Shown here in pieces: positions 710-55,500 of a stretch of 64,000 bases of DNA. Each line of letters begins with the position of its first letter. The stretch's first letter is position 1. The translations under genes were made by a program, and so were the position numbers. Origin of the DNA: Mesostigma viride (taxonomy: Eukaryota > Streptophyta > Mesostigmatophyceae > Mesostigmatales > Mesostigmataceae); NCBI GenBank assembly GCA_009746045.1, contig RPFO01000366.1, positions 186,001-250,000 on the forward strand, in the 5' to 3' direction. Below the pieces are notes generated by a model that was not told where the DNA came from, did not search any database, and saw only the letters and a program-made list of their open reading frames with translations.

Positions 710-3700
710 GTGCGTGCATGCAAAGGGGGGAGAGCAAGAGAAACGATTAGAAGAAGAAGCCAACACCAGATCCAAAGGCCTAAGGATGGAGGCCTAGGGT
801 CCTAGGATGGTCTAAGGATGGCCTAGGATGGCCTAGGATGGCCTAGGATGGTCTGAGGATGGCCTAGGGTCACCCGCTTGTGATGACTAACTCACCATTT
901 CGGTTAACGCAGGTCTATCAAAACAACAGATGAGAGGCATTATCGGTTTGAGAACGAGAGGAGGAGGAAACAGGCGTGGGAATCGATGGAAATATCCGTC
1001 CAAATGTCGATCAACGTCCGCCCTCCGTTCATCTAGAGTAAAGCGGCCAACACGATGGTCGTTTGGAGCTCATGTGGATCACGGCAGACAACGCTGTGCG
1101 GAAACTTGACCTTGTCACCAGAATGAAAATCATGCTGCTGGAGAGCCCACGGATGCGTCAAGACTCGCCTAGTAGCTGAGGGACTGGGATACCTCATGTG
1201 CCCCTCGTTGTCCCGCGTGCATGCATGCATGCATGCATGCGTGGGGGGCTGCGACCTGGCCTACATGTGCCCATATGGTGTCATGCATGCATGCATGCAT
1301 GGGAAGGTGGCGTGCATGGGATGCATGGGATGGTGGCTGGTGGCCTCCACCAAACACAGAAGCCCGTGGGGCGTTGGTGGCAGTTGTCCAGGAATGGCGG
1401 CAGCCTTGTTGAAGACGATATCCCTCGCGGTGGTATGGAAAAGTGCAGCGGAGCTAGATTGGGTATGGCTTTCTGTTTTACTCCACTCCGTACAACGCGA
1501 TGCGATGAATAACCAAGGATTAAGGCGCCACTCGCGGCTGATCCCGGTGAACAACTCGCGGATTGGGCAAGCTGGGAGGATGTCAGGTATTTGGGGGTCC
1601 CGGGTCAGGTATTCGCTGGTCATCGCCACGTATGCTCCTTGCTGCCCTAGTTGTCCCGGGCACGTGTTACCAGTAAGCAATATTTTGTGTGAATGTGTTG
1701 TTATAAAGCCATCTTACTATTCTGTCTGTGGGCTGGTCCACTGAGCCCTTCCTGGGCACCTGTTTTTGCGACGGGCCGTTTGACCCTACGTGAACATGGC
1801 GTTCCGTGGAGCATCCTCGACTTGGGCAAGTGTAGCGCATCCTGGCTGTGCGCTGGTTGATCGCCTGATTTTGTATTTCCATGCTGATGCTTGGCTGCCA
1901 TCACCTGATTGTGATTGTGTCGCCACCCATCATATATATGAGGCAACCAGCGCAGGCCAGACATTTGATGTACTTCTGGCTATGCTCGTGCCCGCAGCGA
2001 GCTGGAGGTGCACGTTGAGTTATTTTTCTTTCCCCTGTGTGCGCCTTCGGCCACGTTACTCTCCCTGGTCGAGCTTGCACCCTGCAGAGAGCTGGAGGCC
2101 CATGAGGACGAGCTGCGCCGGCTGCGCGCCAACAAGCGGATGGCCGACGCGATGCACACACAATTGCAGCGCCGCAACGTGAGTCGTGGGATAAGCTCCT
2201 TGGACTTTCAATAGATTCTAGCATACTGTAAGTGCCATGTGACGCATGTAATGCGATTCATCATCATCTCCTGCAGTGCCGCAACGTGAGAATTTGGTCG
2301 GAAGGTTTCAATATGCTGTGTGTCCCGCAGACTGGACGCAGCACCACAACGCTAGTCGTTGACTGAGTTTCTAGAACTTACAATTATATAGTATTATATA
2401 CTACTGCTGCTGCTGCTACTACTACTACTACTACTACTACTACTACTACTACTACTACTACTACTACTACTACTACTACTACTACTACTACTACTACTAC
2501 TACTACTACTACTACTACTACTACTACTACTACTACTACTACTACTACTACTACAACAATATTATATTATATCATATCATAATATATTATATCATATCAT
2601 ATTATATTATATTATATTATTATATATTATATTATATTACTATTATACTACTATTATATTATATTATATTATTGTAGTGCAACTGTCTTGTGTAGGCTGC
2701 AGCGCCGCAACGTCGTGGCTTATGCCATGTTTACAAATGCATTATGATGTGTAGACGGGCGGCAAAGGGCGCGATGTAGCTCAGGATTCAAGCGCATTAA
2801 ATGCATTGTGATTGTAGATAAGGTTGCGCGTGAGTCATGGATGAAGCCTTCAAAGTGGAGTGTGGCTTGTAGTTAGGCTGCAGGAGGCACAAGGCGGCGC
2901 GTAGATAGGCCGCAGGAGGCACAAGGCGGCGCGTAGATAGGCCGCAGGAGGCACATGGCGGCCGCTAGATAGGCCGCAGGGGGCACAACATTGCCGCTAG
3001 ATAGGCTGTGGGAGACTATTTACACATAGGCTGCAACGGCGCTACCTGAGTTATGGATAGGCGGTGCAGGCAGTACGTGGTCCCTGCATACTGGTGGGTG
3101 AGGAAAGTTGGGTGGTGAAAGGTGGGTGGTGAAAGGTGGGTGAAGAAAGTTGGGTGGTGAAAGTAGGGTGGTGAAAGGTGGGTGAGGAAAGTTGGGTGGT
3201 GAAAGTAGGGTGGTGAAAGGTGGGTGAGGAAAGTTGGGTGAGGAAAGTTGGGTGGCAGAAGTTTGGGTCTTGACAAGGCGGATGCTGGCAACAGCCCGGA
3301 GAGAGCTTGGGTCATGTGCCGCAAACAGATGTCGAGGCTGTACGTCGCAGCGGCACGACGTGGGACGCTTTGCTCTAAGCCTCGCGAGGGCGCCCCCTTT
3401 TCAAAAATGGGTTGGATTTCAACATTCTAGTGGTGATCTTGTGGCTGGGGAGATGGGACGTGGGTGTTTGCGGAGAAGGACTTGCAGACAGGGACTGGAA
3501 GCAGTAAAGGAGTTGCGTATGACTAAGGACATTGGTAACAAAAATGGACACTCGCCTAGCGTCTTCGTGGATTCTCTATTAACTCGTTCCCTTTGCATCT
3601 GTGGGCCAAAATCCCACCATCTCATAACTTCTTGAGTCACGCGTTCTCTTTGGGTACGTATTGGCCGTGCAGCTCCACTTGCCTGAGTCTGTACTAGAAC

Positions 3701-52500: not shown

Positions 52501-55500
52501 ACCACTCCCCCCCCCCCCCCCCCCCCCGGACCTGTCTTGAACGCCCTGCAGCGCGACTTATGAGGAGATTGTGGCGAATGATGGCGTGCCCACCGTGCCG
52601 CCGCCACCGCCGCCACCGCGGGCGCCCCTCGATGACGATGAGCCGGTGGCCTCGCCATTCAGCTGGGTACGTTGCCTATTCTCTTCATGCAGTGCTACCA
52701 TACACTACTCCCGGCTCGCATATAGTAGTATCACGACTGTGCGAACCGGTGGCCTGGCCATTCAGCTGGGTACGTTGCCTATTCTCTTCATGCAGTGCTA
52801 CTATACACTACTCCCGGCTCGCATATAGTAGCATCACGACTGTGTGAACCGGTGGCCTGGCCATTCAGCTGGGTACGTTGCCTATTCTCTTCATGCAGTG
52901 CTACTATACACTACTCCCGGCTCGTATATAGTAGTATCACTACTGTGCGAACCGGTGGCCTGGCCATTCAGCTGGGTACGTTGCCTATTCTCTTCATGCA
53001 GTGCTACTATACACTACTCCCGGCTCGCATATAGTAGTATCACTACTGTGCGAACCGGTGGCCTGGCCATTCAGCTGGGTACGTTGCCTATTTCTCTTCA
53101 TGCAGGGCTACTGGCTATTACACTGGGCCCCTATTTATCATTTAGCTGGGTGTGTCCCCTATTCATTTTCTTGCATGCTGGGCTGCTGCTCATTCCACTG
53201 GGCTCCTACACCGTAGTCTCATCGTTACCAAGCCATTAGCTTCGCCACCTCACTGGGTACACCGCCTGACGTGCAACCGCTTGACGCAATCACGGTTCAC
53301 TTACTAAACTTGTAATACCTTATTATAAAGCCTCTAGCGATAACAACCATTTAGTAGCTGTGTAGGAAGAGCTGGGTGCATCACCCGACAAGCCCCCACT
53401 GCATGCAACTGCCGTCAAGCATGTATAGCTCCAGAACACCCCGTAGTGACTCGAGCCACCAACCGATACACGTGACCCCCAGCCCCCCACTAACACCGGC
53501 TTCCGTAAGTCACCTCACATCCAGGATATCAGGTAACCCTTGGATGGTGTCCAACTCGCCACTACAAATATTGGCAAGCTGCACTTTGCAAGATAATGCC
53601 CACAAACCAACCTAATAACAATTTTTCTGTCCATACTGGGACCAAAGCACACACACATATGGAGTTACGTGGGGTTCATGTCGTGGGTCACGTTGCCATG
53701 TACTATGTAGGTGTGCCAAACATAGCACCACCCTCAGGGGGGTGCGCGAGTGCGAAAAAAAGCACATGTATAACGCACTATTACAGTCCAAAACATTTTC
53801 GTTGCTCGCAATACTGGAAAGGCAGTCGCTTGGGTAGCCAGGCATGGCTTCTGAACACTGACATCATGGGCTGTCCCAGGGACCCAGCTGCACTATGTAA
53901 AAATAATTGGCAGATGACAACTAAAAATTAGTGGCAGCTGTGCACCTGGGTACCCCCCTGTACTTTGGTCCTTAATTAGTCCCTGTTAACTTGTTCTGAA
54001 CATAGTGATGGCCGGTATCAGGGCGTAGAGCACATCTACCTCTAGCAGCAGACCTAAAACTATCACGGAAATTTCTACTGGCATTCTCGTCGCGCCGCTT
54101 CCCATCTGTCCCCTATTTGTAGGGGCGAGTTGAACTGGTCACTATAAATAGGGGGCAGCACGGTTTTAAGGTACCTAGGAGTAGGAGCGTATCCCAAACC
54201 TATCAGTCAGGGCTCATAGGAGTAAGAGGATATCGCATGTATGTAGAGGCGCTGTTTGTCTATTTGATCTCCCATACCAAGGCTGCAAGGCATGCCATAA
54301 TCCCCAAACAACCAGTTCAACTCGCCGATATCTAGGTACGACGTCACATCACAAGCTCCCTCCTCTCATTTCCCCTTCCCCCCTTCCCCCCTTCCCCCTT
54401 CCCCCCTTCCCCCTTCCCCCTTCCCCCTTCCCCCTTCCCCCTTCCCCCCTTCCCCCCTTCCCCTTCCCCCCTTCCCCTTCCCCCTTCCCCCCTTCCCCCT
54501 TCCCCCCTTCCCCCCTTCCCCCTTCCCCCCTTCCCCCTTCCCCCCTTCCCCCTTCCCCCCTTCCCCCCTTCCCCCTTCCCCTTCCCCCTTCCCTTCCCCC
54601 TTCCCCCCTTCCCCCCCTTCCCCCTTCCCCCCTTCCCCCTTCCCCCTTCCCCCCTTCCCCTTCCCCCCTTCCCCTTCCCCCCTTCCCCCCTTCCCCTTCC
54701 CCCTTCCCCCTTCCCCCTTCCCCCCTTCCCCCTTCCCCTTCCCCCCTTCCCCCTTCCCCCCTTCCCCCTTCCCCCCTTCCCCCTTCCCCCCTTCCCCCTT
54801 CCCCTTCCCCCTTCCCCCTTCCCCCTTCCCCCTTCCCCCCTTCCCCCTTCCCCCCTTCCCCCTTCCCCTTCCCCCTTCCCCCCCTTCCCCCCTTCCCCCT
54901 TCCCCCTTCCCCCTTCCCCCCTTCCCCCTTCCCCCTTCCCCCCTTCCCCCTTCCCCCTTCCCCCTTCCCCCCTTCCCCCTTCCCCTTCCCCTTCCCCCTT
55001 CCCCCCTTCCCCCTTCCCCCCCCTTCCCCCTTCCCCCCTCCCCCCTTCCCCCCTTCCCCCTTCCCCCTCCCCTTCCCCCCTTCCCCCTTCCCCCCCTCCC
55101 CCCTTCCCCCCCTTCCCCCTTCCCCTCCCTCCCCCTTCCCGTCCCCCTTCCCCCCTTCCCCCTTCCCCCGTCCCCCCTTCCCCCCTTCCCCCCTTCCCCC
55201 GTCCCCGCCTTCCCCCCTTCCCCCTTCCCCCTTCCCCCCTTCCCCCGTCCCCCCTTCCCCCGTCCCCCTTCCCCTTCCCCTTCCCCCTTCCCCCCTCCCC
55301 CCTTCCCCCTTCCCCCCTTCCCCCTTCCCCCCTTCCCCCCTTCCCCCTTCCCCCTCCCCTCCCCTTCCCCCTTCCCCCCTTCCCCCCCTTCCCCCCTTCC
55401 CCCTTCCCCCTTCCCCCCTTCCCCCCTTCCCCCTTCCCCCCTTCCCCCCTTCCCCCTTCCCCTCTTCCCCTTCCCCCTTCCCCCTTCCCCCTTCCCCTTC

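What the first reader, a model, noticed from the sequence alone, without database searches (positions are those of the whole stretch)
1993..53085. Introns filled with decayed copies of the neighbouring exon's own edge and splice site
In at least three unrelated genes (coiled-coil gene, IMP1, Kelch gene) introns hold copies of the adjacent exon edge. Upstream copies carry acceptor plus first exon bases; downstream copies carry last exon bases plus donor. About a dozen exons show it: 2088-2178, 3995-4126, 26180-26404, 28433-28530, 29367-29460, 31686-31781, 34674-34734, 38334-38466, 39397-39551, 40048-40124, 40865-41014, 41923-42019, 44486-44612, 45415-45519 and 52552-52666. Copies range from about 95% identical tandem arrays to barely recognisable. 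Position and orientation fit tandem duplication across the exon-intron junction, repeated over time. The result is an intron full of decoy donors or acceptors, and a possible route to intron growth. I know of no named mechanism that matches this exactly.
Basis: partly seen in the sequence, partly recalled or inferred. Interest (0 to 1): 0.88.

Follow-up and report, generated by a model that had tools for sequence, protein, structure and literature searches.

The report
Tandem-copied exon-intron borders in an alga
In the green alga Mesostigma viride many introns hold tandem or decayed copies of the neighbouring exon's own edge and splice site, a kind of border-spanning repeat known from lancelet genes as "mirages", most likely left by random local tandem duplication that is tolerated when only a short exon stretch is copied.

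Summary
The window is Mesostigma viride (100% match to an annotated Mesvir1 protein). With exon-only 40-nt queries, 10/51 junctions in the window have a copy (score >=16) in their own intron on the predicted side; 0/48 on the wrong side, 3/1970 in other introns. It replicates in CCT/Cpn60 genes elsewhere: 11/92, 0/92, 14/7308. Of the 15 listed exons 13 have support; 40048-40124 is weak, 28433-28530 fails. Tandem duplication is supported, but not aim at junctions: clean arrays cover 15.4% of intron bases yet only 7/132 junctions. Decayed copies are easier to see at junctions because the exon copy is conserved. The claim that no named mechanism fits is wrong: such repeats are called "mirages" in amphioxus genes. 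New here, as far as my searches show: occurrence in a streptophyte alga, high frequency, a graded series from young arrays to near-erased copies, and a short exon part (17-55 nt, median 31.5, nearest copy of 24 junctions) that may reflect how true splice sites are told from decoys. No RNA was examined.

The parts
31686..31781 (+). Kelch gene exon whose last 19 nt seed a donor mirage
   Evidence: annotated by P0241
31763..32234 (+). 88-bp tandem array: last 19 exon nt + donor + 69 intron nt; five exon-edge copies, four keep GT
   Evidence: TRF; alignments
31274..31473 (+). decayed acceptor copies of exon 31686-31781 (31274-31335 and 31374-31473); seen only with intron bases in the query
   Evidence: scores 22, 20
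52552..52666 (+). Kelch gene exon, seed of a donor mirage
   Evidence: annotated by P0241
52643..53112 (+). 103-bp array: last 24-27 exon nt + donor + intron; four decoys share two substitutions absent from the exon
   Evidence: TRF
38544..38922 (+). decayed donor copies of exon 38334-38466 (starting 38544, 38632, 38844)
37921..38252 (+). acceptor copies of exon 38334-38466: decayed copies 37921-37964 and 38034-38076, plus a 90-bp array 38060-38252 reaching 5 exon nt
44688..44953 (+). three decayed donor copies of exon 44486-44612 (from 44688, 44811, 44926)
41083..41119 (+). donor-side copy of the last 42 nt of exon 40865-41014 (weaker second copy 41652-41690)
   Evidence: score 27
42077..42107 (+). 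donor-side copy of exon 41923-42019 (second copy about 42582-42606)
   Evidence: score 25
39612..39647 (+). donor-side copy of exon 39397-39551, exon nt -55 to -19
   Evidence: score 24
34807..34837 (+). donor copy of exon 34674-34734
   Evidence: 18.5; exon-only 14.5
45584..45777 (+). donor copies of exon 45415-45519, two of the three with only 3 exon nt
28776..28808 (+). acceptor copy of exon 29367-29460 (17 exon nt)
   Evidence: 22.5
26180..26404 (-). exon of a signal peptidase S26 (IMP1-like) gene with copies on both sides
   Evidence: Pfam PF10502 3.6e-11
26465..26704 (-). acceptor-side copies of the IMP1-like exon (26465-26542, 26587-26619, 26669-26704)
26046..26108 (-). donor copy of the IMP1-like exon, 41 exon nt
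   Evidence: score 25
2253..2725 (+). donor copies of coiled-coil gene exon 2088-2178 (2253-2290, 2338-2384, 2698-2725)
1984..2008 (+). acceptor copy of exon 2088-2178
   Evidence: 14.5
3575..3885 (+). acceptor copies of exon 3995-4126 (3575-3618, 3646-3678, 3826-3885), mostly intron bases

Best explanation
These are mirage-type tandem duplications that span exon-intron borders. Mesostigma non-coding DNA undergoes frequent short-range tandem duplication (units mostly about 25-120 bp). Events that fall across a border copy a short exon edge plus the splice site into the intron. The exon-proximal site stays in use, so the protein is unchanged and the new copy is a spare (decoy) site. Some first copies then multiply among themselves as minisatellites; copies decay roughly neutrally. 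Selection keeps the exon, so even old copies stay recognisable at junctions. Selection also removes events that copy long exon stretches. Shown here: tandem structure, side specificity, replication in other genes, splice-site decay near the neutral expectation, no junction preference of young arrays. Inferred: use of the exon-proximal site in RNA, selection as cause of the short exon part, and the DNA-level step (slippage or unequal exchange).
For: Own-intron copies at 21/143 junctions (>=16) against 0/140 wrong side and 17/9278 in other introns (two sets summed). Whole units repeat head to tail. At scores >=20 junctions (10.6%) equal intron interior (11.4%); the excess is only at lower scores, as expected if one copy is conserved. 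Arrays are depleted, not enriched, at junctions. Nearest decoys retain GT/AG in 13/22, 16.4 expected from the decay of their exon part. Units are multiples of 3 in 5/24. Decoys in the 103-bp array share changes absent from the exon, so copies amplify among themselves. Two near-identical genomic copies of a CCT gene have 16 indels in the aligned parts; of the three of 10 nt or more, two (43 and 18 bp) are tandem units (a 3.1-kb insertion lies apart). The annotated protein has the exon-proximal donor at the two young window arrays.
Against: Nearest-copy unit lengths cluster at 76-115 nt in 16 of 24 junctions, while 46 of 77 local repeat events in the window have lags under 75; the random model does not predict this by itself, though decayed interior pairs would be missed. 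The exon part is shorter than uniform placement predicts (mean 32.5 against 50.7), so selection or a breakpoint bias must be added. In all five arrays compared, exon parts are more alike between decoys than the rest of the intron parts (0.94/0.84, 1.00/0.82, 0.79/0.39, 0.61/0.47, 0.81/0.36); ascertainment by the exon part and poor alignment of the old intron parts may explain this, but it was not resolved.
Confidence: 0.8

Rival explanations
1. A junction-targeted process (for example RNA- or splicing-coupled duplication) copies exon edges with their splice sites into introns.
For: The exon part of the nearest copy is confined to 17-55 nt; in nine of the ten window donors with an exon-only copy it starts 57-77 nt into the intron.
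Against: Clean arrays are depleted at junctions (7/132 against 15.4% of intron bases); intron parts are copied along with the exon edge; units of 40, 48 and 76 nt occur in other genes, breaking the 57-77 nt regularity.
Confidence: 0.08
2. The decoys have a function, for example tuning splicing or making decay-targeted isoforms, and are kept by selection.
For: Many decoys keep perfect donors, as in the 88- and 103-bp arrays and L036; exon parts look better kept than intron parts between decoys.
Against: GT/AG retention is no higher than neutral decay predicts (13/22 against 16.4 for nearest decoys; 33/48 against 37.3 for all decoys); no frame bias (5/24).
Confidence: 0.07
3. Introner-like mobile elements, or intron gain by tandem duplication of exonic AGGT segments, left the copies.
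For: Intron gain from mirages has been proposed in amphioxus.
Against: Copies are private to their own intron (17/9278 matches in other introns), so no mobile family; copies sit inside long introns beside the functional site. The tandem-gain model itself was not formally tested.
Confidence: 0.04

Closest known systems
[quoted passage not shown] PMC3087553 and PMC3902484: passages read; the original Nucleic Acids Res 2002 paper is not held and was not read
   Same: Tandem units spanning 5' or 3' exon borders, many with intact splice signals; units of 10-160 bp there, 40-115 bp in 19 of 24 junctions here; reported not to disturb splicing there
   Different: Other lineage; seen here at 21/143 junctions tested rather than in single genes; graded series to nearly erased copies; exon part measured (17-55 nt)
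Variable internal tandem repeats at exon-intron boundaries of human genes in segmental duplications (PMC2812944, passages read)
   Same: Minisatellite expansion touching exon-intron borders, proposed to form novel introns
   Different: Human repeats are recent, about 30-bp units, sought within exons, half in coding sequence; here the copies lie in introns and the exon is unchanged
Intron gain by tandem genomic duplication (potato RdRp, PMC4974935; Drosophila, PMC2891723; search listings with abstract starts only)
   Same: Tandem duplication that brings duplicated splice signals
   Different: There a new intron arises; here copies lie in existing introns
Introners (PMC9860276, search listing with abstract start only)
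   Same: Splice-site-bearing sequence in introns
   Different: Introners insert in many genes; these copies are private to one intron

Membership tests
mirage (exon-intron boundary minisatellite) | tandem repeat whose unit spans an exon-intron boundary | tested here: met
mirage (exon-intron boundary minisatellite) | both 5' and 3' exon borders can be duplicated | tested here: met
   donors and acceptors
mirage (exon-intron boundary minisatellite) | many but not all units keep AG/GT signals | tested here: met
   13/22 nearest decoys, 33/48 of all decoys
mirage (exon-intron boundary minisatellite) | regular splicing is not disturbed | tested here: inconclusive
   annotated protein has the exon-proximal sites, but no RNA was examined
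mirage (exon-intron boundary minisatellite) | copy-number instability between haplotypes | tested here: inconclusive
   the 40-bp donor mirage has two units in both copies of a CCT gene; an intron-internal 43-bp array differs by one unit
introner | homologous copies dispersed over many introns | tested here: not met
   17/9278 matches in other introns of the sets tested
intron gain by tandem genomic duplication | intron itself delimited by two copies of one exonic segment | not tested
   no formal comparison of intron starts with downstream exon starts was made

The most novel reading that the evidence does not exclude
The short exon part of the nearest copy (17-55 nt at all 24 junctions measured) marks the limit at which a duplicated site stops being ignored by the spliceosome. 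Mesostigma would then hold a genome-wide natural experiment in which perfect decoy splice sites are rejected because the information that picks the true site lies in the exon more than about 20-55 nt away. Two farther copies do reach exon nt 62 and 78 (IMP1-like acceptor, L035 donor), but both lack the exon bases next to the splice site.
Probability: 0.35. Interest if true: 0.65.

Novelty: new member of a known kind. Interest (0 to 1): 0.5.

Why it matters
It suggests that exon-border minisatellites, known from a few lancelet genes, can be common in an unrelated lineage, so they may be a general outcome of high tandem-duplication rates. Because the exon is a fixed reference, junction copies reveal past intron-expanding duplications where intron-internal ones are erased. 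Introns with several identical donors give a ready test of how the spliceosome picks one. They may also mislead gene finders: in L037 my simple finder ran past the expected end of exon 2655-2751 into what looks by eye like a copy of that exon end.

Tried and rejected
Junction-targeted mechanism: disfavoured by array depletion at junctions. A fixed unit near 100 nt: suggested by the window, weakened by 40-, 48- and 76-nt units in other genes. Functional retention of decoys: not supported. It is given no weight. Decoy-decoy decay: alignment too poor to decide. A first shuffled-pair test was spoiled by unmasked exons and replaced. A tblastn of an ORF of the window against plasmids found nothing. 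An allelic copy of the window array: the search did not complete. Literature: Mesostigma genome papers, passages found by keyword only (PMC6947507; PMC7027972); none of the passages shown mentions exon-edge copies. Ten paper searches; in the three that used the word 'mirage' only two lancelet papers hold it; the human repeats of PMC2812944 are a further relative.
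Full report
Identity. The window lies in a 439.9-Mb assembly at contig C47:186001-250000. A sialidase translated from it is 100% identical to jgi/Mesvir1/18731, and the Kelch gene matches jgi/Mesvir1/18734 (95% over my whole rough model). 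Mesvir1 I take to be Mesostigma viride, whose published assembly is 441.8 Mb (PMC6947507, passages). The annotated 738-residue Kelch protein maps to 22 blocks between 28433 and 57803; I used the first 21 as exons (40 junctions). The other window genes with the pattern are an IMP1-like S26 peptidase gene (PF10502, 3.6e-11) and a coiled-coil gene at 0.6-5 kb, whose exons I know only from the sequence.

Check of the observation. A scan of 5693 windows of 40 nt shows that the whole window is rich in local direct repeats: on each side 12% have a direct copy (score >=14) within 2.5 kb, against about 1.2% inverted and 0.3% in distant segments. For 47 junctions, edge queries match their own intron at >=13 in 19, shuffled pairings in 26/1756. 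With exon-only queries and final exon positions, 10/51 (>=16) in the window, 0/48 on the wrong side, 3/1970 in other introns.

Replication. PF00118 found exon-by-exon CCT and Cpn60 matches across the genome (58 matches). I fetched nine loci of these genes (L029-L037), not all of those listed, and kept 46 of 56 predicted exons, 92 junctions. Own side 11/92, wrong side 0/92, other introns 14/7308 at >=16. Clear young cases: L036 donor, 40-bp unit twice; L031 donor, 48-bp array; L035 donor, 76-bp array of about four units; L033 acceptor, 102-bp array.

Is the junction special? Intron interiors are also full of local repeats: 27% of Kelch intron bases at >=16, 41% with microsatellites; distant null 1.2% of 523 windows. 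At scores >=20, junctions and intron interiors are alike (10.6% and 11.4%); the junction excess appears only at lower scores. Clean arrays of period 20-200 cover 11.6% of Kelch and 18.3% of CCT/Cpn60 intron bases but only 2/40 and 5/92 junctions; pooled P 0.0006 for depletion, taking junctions as independent. So junctions are hit less, and what stands out there is old copies kept readable by the conserved exon.

Anatomy. In the 24 junctions with a copy at >=15 (11 in the window, 13 in CCT/Cpn60 genes), the exon part of the nearest copy is 17-55 nt, median 31.5. For the 19 with units up to 130 nt the mean is 32.5 against 50.7 expected if units were laid uniformly over the junction with at least 15 exon nt (P 0.0001; none of 20,000 simulations had so low a maximum). 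This test was devised after seeing the data. Two farther copies reach exon nt 62 and 78 but miss the junction. Units are 40-115 nt in 19 of 24; five are longer (163-575), perhaps older or with lost intermediates. Units are multiples of three in 5/24. Nearest decoys keep GT or AG in 13/22, 16.4 expected; two of the misses look like one-base alignment shifts.

Dynamics. In the 103-bp array the decoys share two substitutions that the exon lacks, so the array grew from a decoy. Two genomic copies of one CCT gene (L036 and L038; 98% identical in aligned parts) have 16 indels there; tandem units of 43 and 18 bp are two of the three of 10 nt or more, and a 3.1-kb insertion lies apart; the 40-bp donor mirage has two units in both.

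Comparison with the known. [quoted passage not shown] PGBD5 has 60- and 108-bp cases and troponin C is cited (PMC3902484, passages). Human variable tandem repeats at exon-intron boundaries are also reported (PMC2812944, passages). The match with mirages in structure is close. My searches cover only openly licensed papers.

Limits. No RNA was examined. The CCT/Cpn60 exon ends are my predictions. No other eukaryotic genome was searched as a yardstick, so 'high frequency' is relative to the controls here only. The unit-length and overhang statements rest on 24 junctions.

Noticed in passing
16047-20000 (minus): Sialidase gene with one 2.1-kb intron; after its own annotated entry the best matches are at about 37% identity, and those with names seen in the list are bacterial, which suggests horizontal transfer.
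   Followed up: partly
G000:C1641:60700-68200 (L036) and G000:C887:345500-349950 (L038): Two near-identical copies of a CCT gene (haplotypes or a recent duplication); one carries about 3.1 kb extra in an intron.
   Followed up: partly
about 28890, 32290 and (minus) 24010: By eye, a dispersed element with TCTCCAGA and GGTTGTCTCAT recurs; at 28929-29276 part of it has become a 52-bp tandem array.
   Followed up: no
9939-11009 and 58826-59560 (minus): Two open frames that resemble each other by eye and, by recall, reverse-transcriptase ends of non-LTR elements; the first gave no Pfam hit.
   Followed up: no
35090-36930, 42117-42560, 54372-55887: Very long microsatellite-like tracts (CTTCC, TGGC and CCCCTTC types) inside Kelch introns, giving long open frames that are not genes.
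   Followed up: no
24266-24779: A 256-bp unit present twice at 98% match, a recent tandem duplication outside the studied genes.
   Followed up: no
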